Of a stretch of DNA of 52,336 nt, positions 6,998 to 38,392 are shown piece by piece. The position numbers were made by a program, and so were the translations under genes. The notes below the pieces were generated by a model. That model saw only the letters and a list, made by a program, of their open reading frames with translations, did not search any database and was not told the DNA's origin. How positions within the stretch are numbered: the stretch's first letter is position 1; each line of letters begins with the position of its first letter. This stretch comes from an uncultured Deferribacteraceae bacterium. GTDB taxonomy: Bacteria > Chrysiogenota > Deferribacteres > CAMZNJ01. The stretch spans positions 1 to 52,336 of the forward strand of contig CAMZNS010000024.1 in assembly GCA_947313855.1 (NCBI GenBank), read 5' to 3'.

Positions 6998-8860
6998 TTA
7001 GTCTAGCTCCTTGAACACTTTTATCAGTCGCACACCAGCAATACGGACGACGACGATGTACAATAATACACTGATTGAAACCATTAGTACAGCATGCATG
7101 CCGATACTGTGCATAAATATTAACGCAACACCCATGATACTGCTAGGTATGAATACTTGGCGGATAATACTGACTGCGGTGGAGGTGGCTGGTAGTAGTG
7201 GGAAACCGTGCTTGCGGAGCATTACCCAAAGCAAAATCATCTGAACCATGGACGTAAGAGTAAACGTGGCCGGGATGCTCAAGAAACCAAGGGGGAGCAA
7301 CAATATGTAGGACACAAGCATGGCAACCAAGGCGGATATGGCAATATACATGGGGGTGCGATACGAACCGAGGGAGTAGTAGATACGTGTGAATATGGAC
7401 GAAAGGGTAATAAACACAAGACTCACAGCGTACAACTGCAAAGCTCGGGCTGTCTGGGAAACATCCTCAGAGGTAAACGCATTGTAACCAAAGGCAAGAT
7501 CGATCAAGGGGTAAGGGATAACAACCAAACCGATGGCAGACGGGATAGTTAAAAGTAACGAAACCAAAATAACCCTCTTAATAAGGGGCATGGTAGCACG
7601 GATGGACGCCTCCTCCCCCATGGTTTGACGATTAACGGACAACTGGCGTGCCAACGAATTGAAAAACACAATACTCAACGCAACACCAAGAATTCCCAAC
7701 GGAAACTGCAGAACACGATGGGAATAAAACAGGTAGGTCACACTACCCATGGGCATAAAAGACGCAATAGAACGACCGATAAGCAAACCGATTTGAGACG
7801 AACCCAACGTAATCGCTGTGGGCAACATATTACGCAACGTCAACCAAAGGGCACTATCCACGGGGGATACACGAACATAACGCAAACCAGAACCGTAAGC
7901 AAACCCCCCAACCAATACCAACTGAACCAAACCACCACCCAAAATACTGTAAGCGATGACGTACATGTTGCCATCAAGGTGGGAGGATGCAAGGATACCA
8001 AAAATAAACGCCAAATTAAACAACGCAACAGAAGCATAAGGGATGTAGTACGAATTATAAACATTTAAATACGAAGTAAACGTGCCCATAAGACCAACAA
8101 TGGGGAGATACAACATAAGAAGACGAATAAGATTATTAATGTAAGAATTACTATCGCTGTCGCTAGTCAAAAAACCGGGCATGACGCTGTGACTCAATAT
8201 CTGTGGGAAAATAAGGGCAACAGCAACAATAATCAGAATCGCACCTAGCTGGAAAAATACTAACTGAGATAAGAAAATATTCGCAGAACGACGACTGTCA
8301 AGTGCCTTACTGTTGAGCAAGGGGATGTAGGAAGAACTAAAACTACCCTCAACAATTAAGACGCGGAAAAGATTGGGGATAGCAAATGCAGCAAGAAAAA
8401 TGTCCGTGGCATGACTCGCCCCAAGGGTAATAGCCATGGTGAGATCGCGGACAAAGCCGAGCACCCGACTGGTGAGAATGCCTAAGCTCATGCGGACAAT
8501 CTTGGGGGAGCGGGTGGATGGGTGTGACGACTGTGGTTGCTGTGACTGCTGTGGCGACTGCGACTGTGACTGCTGTGGCGACTGTGGTTGCTGTGGCGAC
8601 TGTGACTGCTGTGGCGACTGTGGTTGCTGTGACTGCTGTGGCGACTGCGACTGTGACTGCTGTGGCGACTGTGGTTGCTGTGACTGCTGTGGCGACTGCG
8701 ACTGTGACTGCTGTGGTTGCTGTGACTGCTGTGACGACTGTGGTTGCTGTGGCGACTGTGGTTGCTGTGACGACTGTGACTGCTGTGACGACTGTGACGA
8801 GAGATCCCCCTTGTTCCCACTGTTCTCAGAATTTTGAGGCGTTGTCGGCATATCCATCAT
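6998..8860 (-). CDS. murJ: Lipid II flippase MurJ with a Gln/Ser/Pro-rich N-terminal extension
   Basis: Integral inner-membrane flippase that moves the peptidoglycan precursor lipid II to the periplasmic face. The MurJ core starts near residue 120 with SLGILTSRVLGFVRDLTMAITLG and ATDIFLAAFAIPNLFRVLIVEGSFSSSYIPLL, followed by about 14 hydrophobic segments, as the family expects. Ahead of it lies about 100 residues built from SQQ, PQQ, SQSPQQ and similar units, which I do not know from MurJ homologues and which would face the cytosol. The start at 8860 is chosen because GAGGG lies five bases upstream; an in-frame start at 8935 has no such site. The protein is 620 residues against a usual 510-530. 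First gene of the leftward group. It complements the elongasome genes on the other side of the window. Confidence 0.93.
   Translation of the reverse strand: MMDMPTTPQNSENSGNKGDLSSQSSQQSQSSQQPQSPQQPQSSQQSQQPQQSQSQSPQQSQQPQSPQQSQSQSPQQSQQPQSPQQSQSPQQPQSPQQSQSQSPQQSQQPQSSHPSTRSPKIVRMSLGILTSRVLGFVRDLTMAITLGASHATDIFLAAFAIPNLFRVLIVEGSFSSSYIPLLNSKALDSRRSANIFLSQLVFFQLGAILIIVAVALIFPQILSHSVMPGFLTSDSDSNSYINNLIRLLMLYLPIVGLMGTFTSYLNVYNSYYIPYASVALFNLAFIFGILASSHLDGNMYVIAYSILGGGLVQLVLVGGFAYGSGLRYVRVSPVDSALWLTLRNMLPTAITLGSSQIGLLIGRSIASFMPMGSVTYLFYSHRVLQFPLGILGVALSIVFFNSLARQLSVNRQTMGEEASIRATMPLIKRVILVSLLLTIPSAIGLVVIPYPLIDLAFGYNAFTSEDVSQTARALQLYAVSLVFITLSSIFTRIYYSLGSYRTPMYIAISALVAMLVSYILLLPLGFLSIPATFTLTSMVQMILLWVMLRKHGFPLLPATSTAVSIIRQVFIPSSIMGVALIFMHSIGMHAVLMVSISVLLYIVVVRIAGVRLIKVFKELD
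8512..8806 (-). repeat. Gln-rich minisatellite in the murJ N-terminus
   Basis: Imperfect modules of 9 and 12 bases (CAGTCGCCACAG, CAACCACAG and similar on the minus strand) code for the SQQ/PQQ/SPQQ tract. Long open frames on the other strands of this stretch are shadows of the repeat. Confidence 0.93.
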
Positions 8861-12208: not shown

Positions 12209-13852
12209 GTGATTTTTCCCCCGAATATGTTCGCAAGGTTGCAAGTTAATCTTCGCCTCATGGTATCTACTCCAAAAGCGTACGTATTGCTTCTGTTGGC
12301 ACTGAGCCTCTCCAGCCTAGTGCTCTGGTCGTGTACGCCCGTTGCGACGCCTAGTAATGGTGCGTCTAGTGTTAGTATGGCTAATGTTGGTCTGACGAAC
12401 CTTGCTACGACCAACCTTGCTACGACCAGTAACATGGGTGGAACAGCAAACAACGGTCGTGGCTCCGTGGGGTTCTACGATATTGTGAGTAACGCCTCGG
12501 CACCCCTACCACTCACAGCCCTTTTGGACAACACCCCCCCCGTAAACTCGGGCAACAACAGCGATTCGATGCGAGACCTCGCCCAGTCTGAACAACTCTA
12601 CTTCGCCTACCTAAACAACGGCACTATCCCTGTAAGCCTGCACCTGCCTCAGGTTGACGCCGCAACATTCATCTCCGATCCGGAATCGCCACCAAGCGAC
12701 CCAACTATGTTCCCCTCCAACTACACCTACCCCATTAATATCGATCCCTTGGCAAAGAAATATATTAGCTACTACACAGGTCCAGCACGCCGAACATTTC
12801 AGATGTGGCTTGAGCGTTCCAATCGTTATATCGATGTTGTAAAAAATATTCTTTACGAAGAGGGTGTTCCTGTGGACTTCATGGCACTACCGTTTGCAGA
12901 AAGTGGCTACAACACCGAAGCTGTATCTTGGGTTGGCGCCACGGGTATCTGGCAGTTTATGCCCAAAACAGGACTCTACTACGGACTAAAACAAGACTTT
13001 TGGCAGGATGATCGCAAAGATTTCGAAGCCTCAACTAGAGCCGCTGCCAAATACCTGAAGAAATCGTACAAGCAGTTCGGAGATTGGCACCTGTCCACAG
13101 CATCCTACAACGCTGGTCCAGGGAAGATTAGCCGTGCCATATCATATTCACGATCCCGTGACTTCTACGTGCTCAACCAAGGCACATACCTTGCCAAAGA
13201 AACAAGTCACTACGTTCCGAAATACACCGCCCTGCTTATCATCTACAAAAACTACCTAGACTACGGCTTCACCATGCCCAAAACAGAGCCCATGATTTAC
13301 AAAACCATAAATATGCCAAGTCAGGCAAACTTTTATGTAATCGCAGATACGCTGGGGATTAGCGTTGGGGAGATACGTGAGTTTAACCCCGGATTGCTCC
13401 ACCCTGTAACGCCACCGAATTCGTACAACCTACGCATCCCCGTGTCGGTCAGCCAAAAGAACATCAACAAACTTCTGGGGATGAGTCGCGAAGAGCTACT
13501 GCAGTACACCGTTTACTATGCCAACAAAGGGCAGAGCGTCAAATCCATCGCTGATCGCTACGGGGTGTCCATCGCCGAGCTCAAACGTATTAACGCACTC
13601 TCCAGCAGCTACTTAACATCAACTAGACCCGTATTGGTGCCTCTGAAAGGTTACTACGATCGCAGCCTAAACAAATGGTTCCAGCTGAATGTTAAACCGG
13701 GTAACGATCTCTACCTTGTGCGTCGTGGCGACTCCTTGGAATCCATTGCACGTAAGGTAAGCATGAGTGTGGAGGAGTTAATCTACCTAAATGGGGAGCG
13801 GAGTTATGGTGAGATTATTCCGGGGCAACGCTTGGTGATTGGTGCACGTTAG
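12209..13852 (+). CDS. mltD: Membrane-bound lytic transglycosylase with LysM repeats (MltD-like lipoprotein)
   Basis: Periplasmic murein hydrolase that cleaves between N-acetylmuramic acid and N-acetylglucosamine. The hydrophobic N-terminus ends in a lipobox-like WSC (LSSLVLWSC), suggesting lipid anchoring. A Ser/Thr/Asn-rich linker follows, including a duplicated TNLATTNLATT from a 15-bp repeat. The SLT domain has the catalytic Glu in LPFAESGYN (about Glu231), GATGIWQFMPKTG and TASYNAGPGKI. The C-terminal third holds three LysM-type segments for peptidoglycan binding (FYVIADTLGISVGEI, YTVYYANKGQSVKSIADRYGVS, YLVRRGDSLESIARKVS). The GTG start at 12209 is supported by GAGG six bases upstream; ATGs at 12227 and 12260 lack one. 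The stop codon lies inside the first unit of the downstream minisatellite. Confidence 0.9.
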   Translation: MIFPPNMFARLQVNLRLMVSTPKAYVLLLLALSLSSLVLWSCTPVATPSNGASSVSMANVGLTNLATTNLATTSNMGGTANNGRGSVGFYDIVSNASAPLPLTALLDNTPPVNSGNNSDSMRDLAQSEQLYFAYLNNGTIPVSLHLPQVDAATFISDPESPPSDPTMFPSNYTYPINIDPLAKKYISYYTGPARRTFQMWLERSNRYIDVVKNILYEEGVPVDFMALPFAESGYNTEAVSWVGATGIWQFMPKTGLYYGLKQDFWQDDRKDFEASTRAAAKYLKKSYKQFGDWHLSTASYNAGPGKISRAISYSRSRDFYVLNQGTYLAKETSHYVPKYTALLIIYKNYLDYGFTMPKTEPMIYKTINMPSQANFYVIADTLGISVGEIREFNPGLLHPVTPPNSYNLRIPVSVSQKNINKLLGMSREELLQYTVYYANKGQSVKSIADRYGVSIAELKRINALSSSYLTSTRPVLVPLKGYYDRSLNKWFQLNVKPGNDLYLVRRGDSLESIARKVSMSVEELIYLNGERSYGEIIPGQRLVIGAR

Positions 13853-14223
13853 TGACGCGGTTGCGTTAGTGACGCGGTTGCGTTAGTGACGCGGTTGCGT
13901 TAGTGATGCGGTTGCGTTAGTGATGCGGTTACGTTAGTGATGCGGTTACGGTTACGTTAGTGATGCGGTTACGTTAGTGATGCGGTTACGTTAGTGATGC
14001 GGTTGCGTTAGTGATGCGGTTGCGTTAGTGATGCGGTTGCGGTTACGTTAGTGATGCGGTTACGTTAGTGATGCGGTTACGTTAGTGTTGCGGTTGCGGT
14101 TACGTTAGTGATGCGGTTACGTTAGTGATGCGGTTACGTTAGTGATGCGGTTACGGTTACGTTAGTGATGCGGTTGCGGTTACGTTAGTGATGCGGTTAC
14201 GTTAGTGTTGCGGTTGCGGTTAC
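13848..14223. repeat. 17-bp minisatellite, 20 units, starting at the mltD stop codon
   Basis: Twenty head-to-tail copies of GTTAGTGATGCGGTTAC, with C/T and A/G variants. Six units carry an extra GGTTAC or GGTTGC and are 23 bases long. The first unit includes the mltD stop TAG. Every unit contains TTAGTGA, so plus-strand translation is stopped repeatedly. No non-repeated spacers are present, which rules out a CRISPR array. The array fills nearly all of the 416-base gap before the transporter gene. Confidence 0.96.
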
Positions 14224-21325: not shown

Positions 21326-21745
21326 ATGAATAGTGTAGAGCAGATACAACTAAAAGTAATCGCCCCCGACAGAATACTCGTGGACAGCATGGTGGACAGC
21401 GTCTACCTCCCCGGAACTGAAGGCGAAATGGGGATAATGCCAGAACACATGAACCTATTAACAGCAATGAATATGGGGGAAGTGCTGTACACCATCAACG
21501 GCGAAGACACATACATCGTCATCGATGGCGGATTTGTGCAGGTCAAAAATAACGAAGTGATTCTTCTTGTGGAGAACGCCTCTTTCGACAGGGAGATAGA
21601 CCTCGAAGAGGCGTCTAGGCGTAGGAAAGACGTTGAAGCAAACCTAAAGGACGTAAAAACAGGCTCGCAAGAGTTTATGGCCATGGAGATGCAACTGCAC
21701 AGAGCCATGCTCGATATCTCCAGTGCCAAGCGAGCACGATTTTAG
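21326..21745 (+). CDS. atpC: F-type ATP synthase subunit epsilon
   Basis: Rotor subunit joining gamma to the c-ring, able to inhibit ATP hydrolysis; 139 residues. The beta-sandwich is seen in LKVIAPDRILVDSMVDSVYLPGTEGEMGIMPEHMNLLTAMNMGEVLY and YIVIDGGFVQVKNNEVILLVENA, followed by the two C-terminal helices. AGGT lies six bases before the ATG. It ends the atp operon, and its stop codon abuts the stop codon of the convergent aroC with no base between. Confidence 0.93.
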   Translation: MNSVEQIQLKVIAPDRILVDSMVDSVYLPGTEGEMGIMPEHMNLLTAMNMGEVLYTINGEDTYIVIDGGFVQVKNNEVILLVENASFDREIDLEEASRRRKDVEANLKDVKTGSQEFMAMEMQLHRAMLDISSAKRARF

Positions 21746-23038
21746 TTAGCGGTCTGTGTGGTGCTCGCGTCCGTGGTGCTCGCGTCCGTGGTGCTCGCGT
21801 CCGTGGTGCTTGTACCCGTGGTGCTTGTACCCGTGGTGCTTGTACCCGTGGTATTCCATGAGTAGGTCGAGGACGCTCAGTGCAACCATACTCTCAGCAA
21901 TAACGATGCTACGGCTACCAACAAAACAATCATGACGACCACCAATTTCCACGTTGGTGTTCGCGTCCATGGTGTTAGCATCCGTGGTGTTCGCGTCCGT
22001 GGTGTTAGCATCCGTGGTGTTCGCGTCCGTGGTGCTCGCATCCGTGCTGGCGTTGCTTAGGGTGGCGTTCTCCTTGAGCAGCGATGAGGGTGCCTTAATA
22101 CTGTACCGTAAGGTAATGGTTTCACCGTTGGAGATGCCCCCTTGTATGCCACCATAGATACTTGGCGGTGATGGTGGGTTGTCCCCTGTCTTATTGGCTT
22201 TGCCTGTGTTGTTCGCCTTGCTAATGAGGGTATCCACGTCACTGCTCGTCATATGTCCAAACTGAAACCCCAGTCCGAACTCAACACCCGTTACAGCTGG
22301 TATGGACATAATCGCCCCAGCTAATTGGCTATTGAGCTTTCGGAACACAGGCTCGCCAACCCCCCCCTCTAGTCCTGCGATGGAGACTTCCACAACGCCA
22401 CCGATACTGTGTCCATTTTGACATGCCTGCTCGAGTGCGGTAATCATTGCGTTGTAGTTGTGTGGGAGTGGTGCTTTGATGGTATTTTGGTCGCTGTGGA
22501 CAAAGTCGAAGTCAACCATGTGTGCCCCTTTTGTCGGGTCGATGGTTGCGCGAGCCTCCCCCACAGCAACAACGTAGCCACAAATAGAGACGCCGTGTTG
22601 AGCCAGTATTTTGAGTGCGATGGCACCACCGGCAACTCGTCCGATGGTTTCCCTTGCGGAAGATCGTCCACCACCACGGTGGTCGCGGTGGTTGTATTTT
22701 AGGTGGTATGTGTAGTCGGCGTGTCCTGTTCGAAACGTATTTTTCAGGTGTTTGTAGTCGTTGCTATTGTGGTCGTTGTTTCGGACGATCATTGTTATTG
22801 GTGTGCCGAGTGTTTTGCCTTCGAATATGCCAGAGACAATTTCCACCGTATCTTTTTCATGTCGTGGAGTTTCGAACGGTTTTAATCCGGGTCGTCGTTT
22901 GTTGAGTTGTTTTTGGATGTATTGTGTGTCGATGTGGAGTCCTGCAGGGCATCCGTCAACGATGACGCCTAAGGCATGTCCATGGCTTTCGCCGAAAGTT
23001 GTGATGCGGAAATTGCGTCCGTAAGAGTTGCCTGCCAT
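21746..23038 (-). CDS. aroC: Chorismate synthase with two insertions of one 15-bp repeat
   Basis: Last enzyme of the shikimate pathway, converting 5-enolpyruvylshikimate-3-phosphate to chorismate with reduced FMN. Conserved blocks are GNSYGRNFRITTFGESHGHALGVIVDGCPAG, RRPGLKPFETPRHEKDTVEIVSGIFEG, HRDHRGGGRSSARETIGRVAGGAIA, and GGRHDCFVGSRSIVIAESMVALSVLDLLMEY near the C-terminus. The 430 residues exceed the usual 350-390 because of an inserted DANTT repeat (about residues 330-361) and a C-terminal tail of HGYKH and HGREH units (about residues 395-430). The core looks complete. It is the third gene of a fliD-fliS-aroC group on the minus strand; a shikimate gene behind flagellar genes is unusual. 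The stop abuts the atpC stop. Confidence 0.95.
   Translation of the reverse strand: MAGNSYGRNFRITTFGESHGHALGVIVDGCPAGLHIDTQYIQKQLNKRRPGLKPFETPRHEKDTVEIVSGIFEGKTLGTPITMIVRNNDHNSNDYKHLKNTFRTGHADYTYHLKYNHRDHRGGGRSSARETIGRVAGGAIALKILAQHGVSICGYVVAVGEARATIDPTKGAHMVDFDFVHSDQNTIKAPLPHNYNAMITALEQACQNGHSIGGVVEVSIAGLEGGVGEPVFRKLNSQLAGAIMSIPAVTGVEFGLGFQFGHMTSSDVDTLISKANNTGKANKTGDNPPSPPSIYGGIQGGISNGETITLRYSIKAPSSLLKENATLSNASTDASTTDANTTDANTTDANTTDANTMDANTNVEIGGRHDCFVGSRSIVIAESMVALSVLDLLMEYHGYKHHGYKHHGYKHHGREHHGREHHGREHHTDR
21752..21856 (-). repeat. 15-bp repeat forming the C-terminal tail of AroC
   Basis: Six or seven copies of a 15-bp unit, read on the minus strand as CAC-CAC-GGA-CGC-GAG (HHGRE) or its CAC-CAC-GGG-TAC-AAG variant (HHGYK). 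Confidence 0.92.
21953..22050 (-). repeat. 15-bp repeat inserted within AroC, same family as the tail repeat
   Basis: Six copies of a unit whose DNA matches the 21752-21856 repeat (plus strand GTGGTGTTCGCGTCC against GTGGTGCTCGCGTCC) but is read one frame over, as GAC-GCG-AAC-ACC-ACG (DANTT). Confidence 0.92.
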
Positions 23039-23066: not shown

Positions 23067-23702
23067 TTAGCCGGAGATATCTAGGCTAGCAGTACCCTTT
23101 GTGTTATTGGTTCTGAGTTCAGGTGTTTTGGTTGCCTTGATGTTCCCCTGTTTTTTAGGTCGTGCATAGGCACCGTAGCCACTAGGTGTGTTAGTTAGTT
23201 TGTGTGCTTCGCTACTTGGTATCGTGGGTGTTGCGTCATGGGTTTGATCGTTGGTATTTGTTATGGGTTTGTTGCCACTAATGTTTGCGGTGGCAGCAGT
23301 TGTGGGTGTTGGTTTGCCCACTTTTGCTTCCTCTTGCGCCACCACTTCACGCCATGTGGTACGTAAGGGTTGGATAATATCGAGAACGTCGCTTAGGTGA
23401 GCAGTATTTTTTTCGATATTTGCTTTTTCGAGTTTGCGAATGACGTAGTCGTAGAGGCTTGCGAGGTTGTCGGCCATTTCGCCCCCAGCTTCTCTGTCTA
23501 GTGAGGAGAGTAGTTCGTAGACAATATCTTGGGATCGGATAATGTAGTTGTGTGCTTCTTGGATATTTTTGTCATCCACATGTTTGATGGAGAGGTTGAT
23601 GAATTTCACAAGTCCGTCGAATAGCATTACGAGTATTGTGCCGTTTGAGGCACCTTCCACTGCATTTCGGAGGTAGTTTTTTGCATAATTTGCTGTACTC
23701 AT
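23067..23702 (-). CDS. fliS: Flagellar chaperone FliS with a Thr/Asn-rich C-terminal extension
   Basis: Cytosolic chaperone that keeps flagellin monomers from polymerising before export. The FliS domain covers residues 1-125: YAKNYLRNAVEGASNGTILVMLFDGLVKFINLSI opens it, and LYDYVIRKLEKANIEKNTAHLSDVLDIIQPLRTTWREV closes it. About 85 further residues, rich in Thr, Asn, Pro and Lys, are not part of the usual 120-130 residue protein and look disordered. It lies directly after fliD, the usual pairing, and 28 bases before aroC. GGAG is ten bases before the ATG, a rather long spacing. No flagellin gene is in the window. Confidence 0.9.
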   Translation of the reverse strand: MSTANYAKNYLRNAVEGASNGTILVMLFDGLVKFINLSIKHVDDKNIQEAHNYIIRSQDIVYELLSSLDREAGGEMADNLASLYDYVIRKLEKANIEKNTAHLSDVLDIIQPLRTTWREVVAQEEAKVGKPTPTTAATANISGNKPITNTNDQTHDATPTIPSSEAHKLTNTPSGYGAYARPKKQGNIKATKTPELRTNNTKGTASLDISG

Positions 23703-23859
23703 AGTTTATTCGCTCCATACTCATAGGGTTTAGATATGTCACCCTGTTGTGGTGTGTTCATGGTTATGCGACGGCTGTGCAACGGTTGTGTGTGTTGTGC
23801 GATTGTTGCGACCATGTATTATCCTTGTTTATTTACCTATCGTCTAAAAGTACAATAAG

Positions 23860-26800
23860 TTAACCTCCAGTGTTAAGTTGTTGTGCGAGGTAGTTGGCCT
23901 GTGATTGTAGTTGTGAGACGCGTAGTTCCATGTTGACGAACCTTTCGGAGAGGGAGCGTAGTGCTTGTTCGTTGCGTCGCGATATTGTTGCGATGCTTTC
24001 GTAGAGTTGTGCGAGGTGTTTGTCGATTGAGCCGTTGGTTTTTATTTTGGATTGTATGGGTCCTGTGAACGATGTTGTGTTTGTGATGTATGTGTTGTAG
24101 ATTCGTGAGAGTCCGATGTCGCGGGAGTTTGTGCCGACGTTGTCTACTTCGGCGAAGAATTGGTGGAGTGAGTTGGGGGCAAACTTTGCGAGGCTCATGA
24201 AGGAGTCATTTTTTTCCAGTAGTTTTTTGATCTGGTCGATATCGGTGGTATCTTCCATGAGTAGTCCTTTTTGGAGCAGGTTGGCGTCGAAGCTGTCGCC
24301 TGTGCCGATGATTCTGATGTCGAAATCGGATAGGAAGCTGAGTCCACTTGAGCCTTTGACTTCGCTGCCGACGAGTGTACGCATTTTGTTACGAATGGAT
24401 CTCATGGTAGCTTCGCTGAGTATGATGTCGGCGGTGTGGTATTTCTTCCAATTCTCTTTGTAGGATTCGATCTCTTTGTCGCTCATGGATGCTGCGTCTT
24501 GACTTGAGAGTGGGTTTTTGTATTGTTCGAGTCGTTTGCGTTCGCCGGTGTCGGCTGTGAGGTATGTCATGATGTCGTTGTAGTTGGCGACAAACGATGC
24601 CATTGCGTCTATGGTTGGTTCTGTGTCCACAGTGACGTCCACAACTGTAACGCCTTCGCTGTAAAGGGTAATGCTTGCACCTTCGATAATATCCTCTAGG
24701 TTGTTGGTTTCGGAGGTGTATCGGATGCCGTTGAGGTCGAATTCGGCACCATGTCCTGTGCTACCGAGGTAGATGGGTTTGGTGGCGTTGGTTGTGAGGT
24801 TTAGGGTTTCGAGGAAGTTGCCAGCTTTGGTATCGTGTTCGGAGCCGATTTTGATGAGATCGGTGCCGTCTGTGGATCTGATTTCGATGGACTGTGTGCC
24901 TGAGTTGAACGACATGATAACGTTGGCGTTGGATTTGTTGACCCTGTTCATTACGTCGTTTAGGGTGTCCGTTGAGGGATCGTAGTAGATGCTAACGTCG
25001 TTGATGGTGAAGATACCCTTGGAGAAGCCTGGCAGTACGTCGCTTAGGGTGTTACCTGCGTCAAGTTTTGGTGATGTGAAGCCTTGGATAAACTGGGCAC
25101 CACGGTCGGAACGCATGTTGAGGAGGTCGTTGAAGGCACCGACGCTAGAGTCGCCAGTCATTCGCACAGGTTTGCCACTTGGTGAGTTGATGGTAAATTT
25201 TTCCGAAGATTCGTCGAAGTACATGTCGATATCGAGGGCTGGGTTGGAGTTGACTAGCCCCATCATTTCGGAGAGGGTCATGTTGTCGCGTATTTTAATT
25301 TGGACATCGTTGATTTCGAGGATGCCGTAGTTGTAGAGAACTCTTGTGCCGTCTAGTGTGCCGTCACCGTTGGTGTCTATGGGCTCTGTTTCCTCGAAGG
25401 AGAACAGTTTGTCGGTGGTGACGCTGCTGTTGAAGAAGCCGTTGTCCACGAGGTCGGCAATGGTTCGTCCGTTAAGAATGTTTTTGTAGCTTGAGCCAGC
25501 AAGGGTAGCAGGGTCAAAGATATTGTCGCCACTTGTGTAAACAGATTTTTTTGTACCGAGATCGCCAGGTCGAGAGGTGGTTTCGTAGATGAAGCCCCCC
25601 TCTTTCAGGGCGTTGGCGGGGTCGCTGGAATGGTCATCGGTGGCGAAGTTTGGTGTTGCAAATCCAACATTGCGAATTAGGGCGGCATTTTTGGCGTTGA
25701 ATAGGTAGAACCCGTCTGCACCTGTGCTATGGGAGAAGCTGGGGTCTGCCTCTGTGCCCGATATGCCTGCACCAAGGCGTAATTCGAGGTTGCGTGATGA
25801 TTCTTCGGCAATCATGTTGACCATGGTTTGTGTTCGGTTAGTGGAGATATTGATAAATCCTAGGGCGAGTGCGAGTGCATCGTTGCCAAGTGGGTCGTTA
25901 AGGGAGGCATCAATGGTGAGGTTTTTGCCTGAAACGTCGTAAGTGGCGACTGTCCATTCCCCTGTTGTGGCATCTCGCTCCGCTTTGAGGGCGACATACT
26001 GTAGGGAGCCGGTGTTGTGTAAGTTATTTATTTGGTCGTTGAGTTTGTCTTCAATATCCGAGAGTATTTCGGTTAGGGTGTGTCCTGTTTCGAGGTCGAT
26101 GTGTATTGGTGGAAGTGTTACCCCGTCGATGATAAACTCGATGGGCTCCGATGCTGACGATGCACCGCCAGGGAAAGCAACACGCCCCCATGTATCGATA
26201 TACCTTGTGTCCACGGAGAGTCCGTTGGTGTGCTTGGTGACAACTTTGCCGTCTTCAAATTCGAAGATATCCTTGGCGATCCAAACGTCGCCCGCACCAA
26301 CACCACCGCTGCCACCACCGCCGCCACTGGATCCGGGGATGTACTCCACAAAGTGGTTAATAGGTAGAGCGTCGATGTATTCGGTACGATCGATGCCACC
26401 GAGTAGGTTTGTTGTTTCGTTGAGGTTGGTGATTTTGTGTTGCGAGCTTCCGCCGTACAGACCGAGCTTGAACTCTGTGCCTTCACGCTCAACAGCGGGC
26501 ACAAAGTATTTGACACCACTGGTACCCATTTCGACGTTAATGGCGTCGTTCATGGCGTTGGTCATCCTGTCCATGACATCGTTTGCGGTTTCGTCTTTTT
26601 TGATATCGAAATTGATGCTGATATTGACGGTTTGTATTGTGGCAGGCACTGTTGGCGGGATAGCTTCCACGTCCATGCTGAATGAGTAGCTGAGGCTTTT
26701 GTCGGCGGATACAACACCGTCGTCAAGGTCGGGGTCAGCATCAACGTTGGCATCAAGCATGAAGGAGCTTGCATCCCCGAACATAAATCGTTGGAAAAGG

Positions 26801-27831
26801 TTTACTTCTTTTTGTTCGGTGGGTGGCGTGTAGGTATCTGAGCCGATGTCGTCAATACCGAAGTCTCCGCCATAGCTTAGGGCTCTCATGTTGAAGTCCA
26901 TTTTGTCGTTACCGGGTGTTGTGTCGGTGATAACAAGTCGCCATCCGTTGGCATCATTGTCCCAGAAGGCATCAACTTCGATGGGGTTGCCTGTTGTTTG
27001 TCCATCGTTTTGAAGTGCTGTATTGATTTTGCGTGCAAGATCTTGGAGGTCATCCTGCAGAAGGGAGCCTAGGGATCCAAAGCCTATTGTTTTGTAGTTT
27101 GAGTATCCTCCTGAGCCGTCGGGAAGTCCGATTTGCATCTCTTTGTTGACATATTGCCCTGTTGCGTTGGGGTCGTATGTGCCGTCACTGGCGTAACCGG
27201 GCATGACCGATGAGCCAACGTAGACGTCGTAATCAGGGTTGGTGCCCCCGCCACCCGGATCGATGGGTACGTTGGCGATGTATTTGATGGCTTTGGCATC
27301 TGTTTGGGTAAACGGAGAAACTTTGTGGGTGGCATCGGTAGAGCCCCCAGAGCCCCCTGAGCCCCCCGTTCCGCTGAAATACCCAAGGTCTTGGATACTA
27401 ATATTGTGGCGACCTTCAACTTGGTCGTACATTGTTGGTCGACCGGCGGCACTGTTAACATTTGCACCTCTGTAGGAGAGGTATCCTGTGGTAAATATGG
27501 ATGAAGCTCGTGCAGGTTCGGCGAGTTGGAGTACGTCAAAGCGGTAGCTACCGATGGGGGTGGTGGCACTTGGTGTAAACGATAGTATGCCGGGATTGGA
27601 GTTGGTGGAGAGCTTACTATTGAATGTTGCGGCGAGGTTGAGGTCGACGAGGTTGTTTTTGAATCCCTGCATTTTTTTGTTGAGATCGCGGTAGATGTCT
27701 TGGCGGAGTTTGAGGAGGTCGACCTGTTTGTTGGCGGCATCAATGGGGATGTTTAGGGATGCGGCGTAAGCGTCGACAATGTCGTTTGTGGGTAGTCCAG
27801 AAGCTAGTCCACCGATGGCTAAGTCTCTCAT
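23860..27831 (-). CDS. fliD: Flagellar filament cap protein FliD, unusually large
   Basis: Caps the flagellar filament and helps flagellin fold into place. The N-terminal FliD domain (residues 1-105) starts IGGLASGLPTNDIVDAYAASLNIP and includes ARASSIFTTGYLS. Flagellin-IN-type segments recur around residues 834 (LEINDVQIKIRDNMTLSEMMGLVN) and 942 (FTINDVSIYYDPSTDTLNDVMNRVN). The C-terminus has the FliD signature region (VDVTVDTEPTIDAMASFVANYNDIM) and ends in a coiled segment (MELRVSQLQSQANYLAQQLN). At 1323 residues it is two to three times the usual 450-700. The extra mass lies between about residues 150 and 820 and includes glycine-rich linkers (GGSGGSGG, GGGGGSGG). This surface-exposed insertion may form additional outer domains. 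It is first in the group with fliS and aroC. Confidence 0.9.
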   Translation of the reverse strand: MRDLAIGGLASGLPTNDIVDAYAASLNIPIDAANKQVDLLKLRQDIYRDLNKKMQGFKNNLVDLNLAATFNSKLSTNSNPGILSFTPSATTPIGSYRFDVLQLAEPARASSIFTTGYLSYRGANVNSAAGRPTMYDQVEGRHNISIQDLGYFSGTGGSGGSGGSTDATHKVSPFTQTDAKAIKYIANVPIDPGGGGTNPDYDVYVGSSVMPGYASDGTYDPNATGQYVNKEMQIGLPDGSGGYSNYKTIGFGSLGSLLQDDLQDLARKINTALQNDGQTTGNPIEVDAFWDNDANGWRLVITDTTPGNDKMDFNMRALSYGGDFGIDDIGSDTYTPPTEQKEVNLFQRFMFGDASSFMLDANVDADPDLDDGVVSADKSLSYSFSMDVEAIPPTVPATIQTVNISINFDIKKDETANDVMDRMTNAMNDAINVEMGTSGVKYFVPAVEREGTEFKLGLYGGSSQHKITNLNETTNLLGGIDRTEYIDALPINHFVEYIPGSSGGGGGSGGVGAGDVWIAKDIFEFEDGKVVTKHTNGLSVDTRYIDTWGRVAFPGGASSASEPIEFIIDGVTLPPIHIDLETGHTLTEILSDIEDKLNDQINNLHNTGSLQYVALKAERDATTGEWTVATYDVSGKNLTIDASLNDPLGNDALALALGFINISTNRTQTMVNMIAEESSRNLELRLGAGISGTEADPSFSHSTGADGFYLFNAKNAALIRNVGFATPNFATDDHSSDPANALKEGGFIYETTSRPGDLGTKKSVYTSGDNIFDPATLAGSSYKNILNGRTIADLVDNGFFNSSVTTDKLFSFEETEPIDTNGDGTLDGTRVLYNYGILEINDVQIKIRDNMTLSEMMGLVNSNPALDIDMYFDESSEKFTINSPSGKPVRMTGDSSVGAFNDLLNMRSDRGAQFIQGFTSPKLDAGNTLSDVLPGFSKGIFTINDVSIYYDPSTDTLNDVMNRVNKSNANVIMSFNSGTQSIEIRSTDGTDLIKIGSEHDTKAGNFLETLNLTTNATKPIYLGSTGHGAEFDLNGIRYTSETNNLEDIIEGASITLYSEGVTVVDVTVDTEPTIDAMASFVANYNDIMTYLTADTGERKRLEQYKNPLSSQDAASMSDKEIESYKENWKKYHTADIILSEATMRSIRNKMRTLVGSEVKGSSGLSFLSDFDIRIIGTGDSFDANLLQKGLLMEDTTDIDQIKKLLEKNDSFMSLAKFAPNSLHQFFAEVDNVGTNSRDIGLSRIYNTYITNTTSFTGPIQSKIKTNGSIDKHLAQLYESIATISRRNEQALRSLSERFVNMELRVSQLQSQANYLAQQLNTGG

Positions 27832-28020
27832 AGTGTAAACCCTCGAGCACGACTTTACGTTATGGTTGTGTTGTTGTGTAACGTAAAGGGGTGGCTCAGT
27901 TTGTTGTATCTATCTTTGTTGTATTCAGGTATAAATAAAGCAACTATGAAAACAAGGGTAATTAGTCGCCAGCATGGCACTAGTAATAATCTTAATTATT
28001 ATCTTAGCACATACAATGTT

Positions 28021-28048
28021 ATATCGGCAACAAAAATCGTAAGCTTTA
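28021..28048 (-). promoter_or_regulatory. Sigma28 (FliA)-type promoter upstream of fliD
   Basis: On the minus strand TAAAGCTT (28048-28041), twelve bases, then GCCGATAT (28028-28021). This is TAAA-N16-GCCGATAT against the enteric consensus TAAA-N15-GCCGATAA, with seven of eight -10 positions matching. It points at fliD, about 190 bases away, and would make fliD-fliS-aroC a late flagellar unit. The rest of the gap 27832-28206 shows only an AT-rich inverted repeat near 27985. Confidence 0.65.
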
Positions 28049-29604: not shown

Positions 29605-29780
29605 CAACGTAACGTAACGCAACGCAACGTAACGCAACGTAACGCAACGCAACGTAACGCAACGTAACGCAACGCAACGCAACGCAAGCAACGCAAGCAA
29701 CGCAAGCAACGCAACGCAAGCAACGCAAGCAACGCAAGCAACGTAACGCAAGCAACGTAACGCAAGCAACGCAAGCAACG
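29605..29780. repeat. Pentamer array (ACGCA/ACGTA) between the RND adaptor and pump genes
   Basis: About 35 units of CAACG, TAACG and CAAGCAACG types fill most of the gap 29546-29862. If the two genes form one operon, the array is transcribed. There is no sign of a hairpin or promoter in it. Confidence 0.94.
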
Positions 29781-37836: not shown

Positions 37837-38325
37837 CGTCTGCGTCTGAGTCGACTTGCCCGTCGGGTGTTGGGCGTTGGGCGCGGTGTGGTGACGTGTT
37901 GGGGTGGTGAGCGGGTCACGCGGTTGATCCGGGTTGTGGGTGCGTCGGGGTCGGGTGGCGCGTGGGGTGTTGGGGTTTGGTCGTGGGGTGGCTCGGGGTT
38001 TTGGTGGTTTAGGGGGGTCGCGTCGGCGTCTGAGTCGGCTTGCCCGTCGGGTGTTGGGCGTTGGTCGTGGTGTGGTTAGCGGTTCACGTGGTTAACGGCT
38101 CACGCGTCTGCGTCTGAGTCGACTTGCCCGTCGGGTGTTGGGCGTTGGTCGTGGTGTGGTTAGCGGTTCACGTGGTTAACGGCTCACGCGTCTGCGTCTG
38201 CGTCTGAGTCGACTTGCCCGTCGGGTGTTGGTCGTTGGTCGTGGTGTGGTTAGCGGTTCACGTGGTTAACGGCTCACGCGTCTGCGTCGGCGTCGGCTTG
38301 CCCGTCGGGTGTTGGGCGTTGGTCG
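37837..38325. repeat. Five 84-90-bp direct repeats between the RsmI-like gene and lysS
   Basis: Copies begin near 37837 (degenerate), 38020, 38104, 38188 and 38278. Each contains GCGTCTGCGTCTGAGTCGAC, CTTGCCCGTCGGGTGTTGGG, then GGTTCACGTGGTTAACGGCT. Units are 84, 84 and 90 bases apart; the 6-base difference is one extra GTCTGC. The first copy starts directly after the stop codon at 37836. There is no spacer between units, so this is not CRISPR. Confidence 0.93.
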
Positions 38326-38392
38326 TCAGTCGTCGGTCGTCGGTCGTCAGTCGTCGGTCGTCGGTCGTCAGTCGTCAGTCGTCGGTTGGTAC
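38326..38392. repeat. 7-bp CGTCGGT/CGTCAGT array
   Basis: About nine copies of a heptamer adjoining the 84-bp repeats, in the gap between the convergent RsmI-like and lysS genes. The rest of the gap to 38459 is an ACCAAC-rich remnant. Confidence 0.92.

What the first reader, a model, noticed from the sequence alone, without database searches (positions are those of the whole stretch)
28021..28048. Sigma28-type promoter driving fliD-fliS-aroC
TAAA-N16-GCCGATAT points at fliD and places the shikimate enzyme AroC, 28 bases behind fliS, in a late flagellar transcript. Essential aromatic synthesis under flagellar control would be strange, so an internal aroC promoter may exist.
Basis: partly seen in the sequence, partly recalled or inferred. 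Interest (0 to 1): 0.55.

Follow-up and report, generated by a model that had tools for sequence, protein, structure and literature searches.

The report
Flagellar promoter before fliD-fliS-aroC
A normal flagellar (sigma-28) promoter really does precede the filament-cap gene fliD in what is probably a vent-shrimp gut symbiont, and an unrelated chorismate-making gene has come to sit directly behind, so that gene may partly be read on a flagellar transcript.

Summary
Minus-strand TAAA-N16-GCCGATAT at 28048-28021 is the window's best sigma-28 site by a matrix trained on other genera; 0 of 2000 shuffles reach it. The genome has fliA. The site lies in a conserved block before fliD in the sister genome, and 18 of 20 fetched class relatives have such a site 18-46 nt before fliD. 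So fliD is almost certainly a FliA gene, which is textbook.

Two things are particular to this genus. The promoter sits 189 nt (sister 206 nt) before fliD. And aroC follows fliS by 28 nt in 2 of 34 genomes with both genes, both of this genus. No terminator-like site separates the genes, so read-through into aroC is likely, though unmeasured.

'Essential aromatic synthesis' needs qualifying: aroA passes its model and aroB and aroK relatives are present, but no Chorismate_bind enzyme was found while MqnA/MqnD-family genes exist, so chorismate probably feeds menaquinone. I found no good evidence for an aroC promoter at the end of fliS. Interest is low to moderate.

The parts
28021..28048 (-). sigma-28 (FliA) promoter: -35 TAAA at 28045-28048, spacer 16, -10 GCCGATAT at 28021-28028
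27832..28020 (-). 189-nt region between the -10 box and the fliD start codon (206 nt in the sister); 18-46 nt in 18 of 20 fetched class relatives
27853..27888 (-). possible hairpin (10-bp stem) just before the fliD ribosome site; weak evidence
   Evidence: z -1.9; sister (z -0.4); no Rfam match
23860..27831 (-). fliD, filament cap protein, 1323 aa
   Evidence: FliD_N and FliD_C
23837..23863 (-). weak second sigma-28-like site TTAA-N15-GACGATAG in the fliD-fliS gap, conserved in the sister; could serve fliS-aroC
   Evidence: 3 mismatches of 12; not distinguished from chance
23067..23702 (-). fliS, flagellin chaperone, 211 aa with a long C-terminal tail
   Evidence: Pfam, TIGR00208
21746..23038 (-). 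aroC, chorismate synthase, 430 aa with tandem-repeat insertions near the C terminus
   Evidence: Pfam, TIGR00033; repeats
21326..21745 (+). atpC (ATP synthase epsilon), convergent with aroC, abutting it with 0 nt between

Best explanation
The site is an ordinary class-3 flagellar promoter. RNA polymerase with FliA (sigma-28) starts just below 28021 on the minus strand and transcribes fliD and fliS late in flagellar assembly. In the ancestor of this symbiont genus, gene rearrangement put aroC directly behind fliS, so the FliA transcript most likely runs on through aroC until it meets the convergent ATP synthase operon. AroC then makes chorismate, probably mainly for menaquinone by the futalosine route. 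A basal supply for aroC probably comes from a weaker promoter further upstream, for example in the 157-nt fliD-fliS gap. Shown here: the site, its conservation, the presence of fliA, the gene order, and the absence of terminator-like sites. Inferred: FliA dependence, read-through, the use of chorismate, and any second promoter.
For: Best-scoring site of the window, 0 of 2000 shuffles. It lies in a 75-column block with 5 differences from the sister genome, against about 25% divergence at 4-fold sites. Same promoter type before fliD in 18 of 20 fetched relatives; shuffle mean 1.56, maximum 5 of 20. FliA_WhiG protein over its cut-off, in a cluster with flhA, an flhF-like and an flhG-like gene and fliM. 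A flagellin region of the same genome carries a strong site of the same kind, TAAAGTTT-N11-GCCGATTA. No minus-strand terminator-like site between fliD and aroC. Same fliD-fliS-aroC order in the sister.
Against: No transcript data. The 28 columns of the site alone differ from the sister at 3, which is not significantly below 25% (p 0.055), and the sister site scores lower (14.5 bits). The leader is unusually long (189 nt). Not every flagellin has a good site: of 25 class-relative flagellin loci scanned, 13 had no site with 3 or fewer mismatches within 250 nt, and L045 and L046 of this genus had none above 12 bits. Read-through into aroC rests on gene spacing and on the absence of terminator-like sites.
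Confidence: 0.8

Rival explanations
1. fliD-fliS are FliA genes, but aroC has its own sigma-70 promoter and is expressed independently; the flagellar transcript contributes little.
For: Chorismate supply should be needed at all times (general knowledge). Weak sigma-70-like sites exist in the fliD-fliS gap (TAGACG-N17-GATAAT, 9 of 12) and inside fliS (TCGAAA/AATACT, 8 of 12, about 363 nt before aroC in both genomes).
Against: 9 promoter-like sites were found in the region against 8.0 in shuffles, so such sites mean little. No dip of synonymous divergence at the fliS 3' end: 0.40 in fliS codons 177-211 against 0.23 for the gene.
Confidence: 0.35
2. A second, weak sigma-28 promoter in the fliD-fliS gap (23863-23837) drives fliS-aroC apart from fliD.
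For: TTAA-N15-GACGATAG is conserved in the sister within a 61-column block with 7 differences.
Against: 3 of 12 mismatches, a quality I did not separate from chance here; its -35 overlaps the fliD stop codon.
Confidence: 0.12
3. The TAAA...GCCGATAT match is chance, and fliD is driven from another promoter.
For: Leader of 189 nt where relatives have 18-46 nt. A sigma-54-like TGGCATAAAAATAGCT lies just upstream at 28074-28059, and rpoN is present.
Against: 0 of 2000 shuffles, sister conservation, and the class-wide sigma-28 promoter of fliD. Sigma-54-like sites of that quality are near chance level in the window: 42 found against 32.7 expected, 8 of 100 shuffles reaching 42.
Confidence: 0.05

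Closest known systems
FliA-dependent fliDST operon of E. coli
   Same: sigma-28 promoter before fliD-fliS; fliDST is listed as a class 3 operon in PMC4183435 (passage). The TAAA / GCCGATAA boxes are recalled.
   Different: no aroC behind it there (recalled); here a 189-nt leader, and no fliT between fliS and aroC
fliD promoters of other Deferribacteres
   Same: TAAAG-N14/15-nnCGAT-type sites before fliD in 18 of 20 fetched genomes, spacers 15 or 16
   Different: 18-46 nt before the start codon instead of 189; fliS not followed by aroC
FliA promoters of non-flagellar genes (modA, flxA in E. coli)
   Same: a gene with no evident motility role under FliA (PMC4183435, passages)
   Different: here by read-through from a flagellar operon, and only predicted

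Membership tests
sigma-28 (FliA) promoter | TAAA -35 and GCCGATAA-like -10 (consensus recalled) | tested here: met
   11 of 12 positions
sigma-28 (FliA) promoter | spacer 15-16 nt between the boxes | tested here: met
   16 here; of the 18 relatives' sites 15 have 15 and 3 have 16
sigma-28 (FliA) promoter | cognate FliA sigma factor in the genome | tested here: met
   TIGR02479 220 bits, cut-off 189.6
sigma-28 (FliA) promoter | conserved upstream of the same late flagellar gene | tested here: met
   sister genome; 18 of 20 fetched class relatives
sigma-28 (FliA) promoter | FliA-dependent transcription start | not testable with these tools
   needs 5'-end mapping or a reporter
fliD-fliS-aroC operon | same strand, short gaps, no terminator between | tested here: met
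   gaps 157 and 28 nt; no minus-strand terminator-like site between
fliD-fliS-aroC operon | conserved gene order | tested here: met
   kept in the sister, but confined to this genus: 2 of 34 genomes with both genes
fliD-fliS-aroC operon | one RNA spanning fliS and aroC | not testable with these tools
   needs RT-PCR or RNA-seq
chorismate synthase AroC | equivalog score over cut-off | tested here: met
   TIGR00033 347 bits, cut-off 212

The most novel reading that the evidence does not exclude
In this reduced symbiont the capture of aroC by a FliA operon is adaptive: chorismate, and through it menaquinone and respiration, is raised together with flagellar assembly, and the same transcript, running without a gap into the convergent atp operon, tempers ATP synthase expression.
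Probability: 0.06. Interest if true: 0.6.

Novelty: new member of a known kind. Interest (0 to 1): 0.27.

Why it matters
It extends FliA control of fliD to an uncultured gut symbiont of the Deferribacterota whose flagellar genes are thought to serve host colonisation (PMC9636832). It also gives a clear case in which genome rearrangement placed a metabolic gene behind a flagellar promoter, which a single RT-PCR or RNA-seq experiment could turn into a test of whether such captures change regulation.

Tried and rejected
A sigma-54 site (TGGCATAAAAATAGCT, 28074-28059): conserved in the sister, but 42 matches of that quality were found in the window against 32.7 expected, so not claimed. An RNA element in the leader: fold z -1.9 here and -0.4 in the sister, no Rfam match; left as possible. 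An aroC promoter hidden at the end of fliS: no dip in synonymous divergence and no convincing box. The two other exact TAAA-N14-17-GCCGATA sites of the genome: one lies antisense within an MlaD-family ORF; the other lies near a contig end, beyond a proton-antiporter-family ORF. Neither was followed further.

Literature: 'chorismate synthase' with 'flagellar operon' gave 1 paper, unrelated by its title; 'fliS', 'aroC' and 'operon' gave 6, none of which by title and opening of abstract concerns their adjacency; FliA, fliD, sigma28 and Deferribacter (three of four terms) gave 90, 8 listed, none of the 8 holding Deferribacter. These searches cover only the held open library. DAHP synthase, AroD/AroQ, AroE and PheA/TyrA were not searched, so a complete shikimate pathway is not shown.

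Full report
What was claimed.

The minus strand reads TAAA-N16-GCCGATAT at exactly those coordinates. FliD, FliS and chorismate synthase are confirmed by Pfam and, for FliS and AroC, by NCBIfam models over their cut-offs. The gaps are 157 nt (fliD-fliS) and 28 nt (fliS-aroC). No minus-strand terminator-like site lies between fliD and aroC. aroC ends directly against the convergent atpC.

Where it is. The window is contig C24 of a 1.34-Mb, 91%-complete genome. In its only congener among the 40 genomes searched, G001, contig C40 has the same length (41,775) as record CAMZNJ010000040.1, 'uncultured Deferribacteraceae bacterium isolate M_SnakePit_MAG_00002'. That isolate name fits the Rimicaris exoculata midgut MAGs of PMC9636832, whose four Deferribacteres genomes are 1.25-1.36 Mb (passages). 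That the window is from the same group of shrimp symbionts is an inference.

Is it more than chance? I fetched the fliS region of 20 class relatives (of 36 outside the genus with a FliS match) and looked within 60 nt before fliD. A TAAA-N15/16-GCCGATAA-like site with at most 3 of 12 mismatches is present in 18 of 20, 18-46 nt before the start codon; shuffled upstream regions give a mean of 1.56 and a maximum of 5 of 20. The two without are L090 and L104. A matrix from these 18 sites, with no sequence of this genus in it, ranks the window site first in 52 kb and above all 2000 shuffles of the intergenic region. Caveat: the training sites had been chosen by likeness to the recalled E. coli consensus.

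Conservation. In the sister the order efflux genes / fliD-fliS-aroC / atp genes is the same (one search gives frames of matching lengths). The upstream region aligns. The 75-column block that ends just past the -10 has 5 differences, against 25% at 4-fold sites of fliD; the block was chosen after the fact. The 28 columns of the site alone have 3 differences, which is not significant (p 0.055), and the sister's site (spacer 15, TAAAC, GCCGATTT) scores lower, 14.5 bits.

The sigma factor. FliA is present with 220 bits, in a run flhA (FHIPEP), an flhF-like SRP54 GTPase, a MinD-like flhG candidate, fliA, then fliM. A flagellin region of the genome has TAAAGTTTTGTTCACTTCTGCCGATTA, scored 21.4 bits, though about 740 nt before the nearest plus-strand flagellin start. 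Another flagellin has TAAAGTTT-N11-GACGATGT, nearly identical in the sister, roughly 90 nt before its start. The remaining flagellin and flagellin-like loci of the two genomes had no site above 12 bits.

The odd part 1: leader length. Relatives place the promoter 18-46 nt before fliD; here it is 189 nt, and 206 nt in the sister, with no site of 4 or fewer mismatches within 150 nt of the start. The fliD-fliS gap is also longer: 157 nt against 11-66 nt (upper bounds) in the 20 relatives. A hairpin may form just before the ribosome site, but folding statistics are weak and Rfam has no match.

The odd part 2: aroC. Of 40 genomes searched, 34 have both a FliS and an AroC match, and only G000 and G001 have them adjacent. 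In the other 32 they are on different contigs or, on the same contig, 26 kb to 1.6 Mb apart (G016, G004, G014, G021). In two relatives examined (L012, L031) aroC instead follows an Oxidored_molyb and a DUF190 gene; in a third (L021) an ankyrin-repeat gene lies before it. So aroC most simply joined fliS within this lineage.

What aroC is for. AroA passes its model (302.7 bits, cut-off 287.25). AroB (258 bits, cut-off 305) and a shikimate kinase next to it match their families below the equivalog cut-offs. No Chorismate_bind (PF00425) enzyme was found in G000, G001 or G021, while G014 has one; the missing tenth of the genome could hide one. Two VitK2_biosynth proteins (the MqnA/MqnD family) are in each of the four genomes, though no NCBIfam model named the two from G000. 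With PMC9636832 reporting only serine, glycine and alanine pathways complete (passages), menaquinone by the futalosine route is the likeliest use of chorismate (inference). The other shikimate steps were not searched.

Is there an aroC promoter? Synonymous divergence gives no sign at the end of fliS: fliS codons 177-211 differ at 0.40 of 4-fold sites against 0.23 overall. Sigma-70-like sites are at background level. The most promising place is the fliD-fliS gap, where a 61-column block has 7 differences and includes a weak sigma-28-like TTAA-N15-GACGATAG. None of this is decisive.

Conclusion. The promoter is real with high probability and ordinary: fliDST is a known FliA operon in E. coli (PMC4183435, passages). 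The position of aroC behind it was found only in this symbiont genus and makes partial FliA control of aroC likely but unproven.

Noticed in passing
window, e.g. 21758-21852, 21955-22046, 8523-8800, 13846-14215, 29605-29780, 37942-38386: Tandem repeats cover 5.4% of the window and 4.8% of 57.6 kb of other G000 stretches, 2.6% of 31.8 kb of the sister, but 0.63% of 166 kb of 20 class relatives; several lie inside genes.
   Followed up: partly
window 21746-22052; L038:13130-13420: AroC carries in-frame 5-residue repeats (TTDAN-like) near the C terminus and a HHGYK/HHGRE tail. In the sister the last part of the conserved region is replaced by similar repeats, a real change or an assembly collapse.
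   Followed up: partly
G000:C49:3756-5375 (aroA), G000:C38:27941-29446 (aroB): AroA (539 aa) and AroB (501 aa) frames are also longer than those of the relatives in the same searches, with matches broken into pieces or partial, perhaps from the same repeat growth.
   Followed up: no
window 21745/21746: aroC and atpC converge with no base between them (a 4-nt overlap in the sister), so an aroC transcript must end inside the atp operon or run antisense to it.
   Followed up: no
L160:3912 and L160:4100: Two sigma-28-like sites lie about 740 and 555 nt before a plus-strand flagellin start, another long leader like that of fliD.
   Followed up: no
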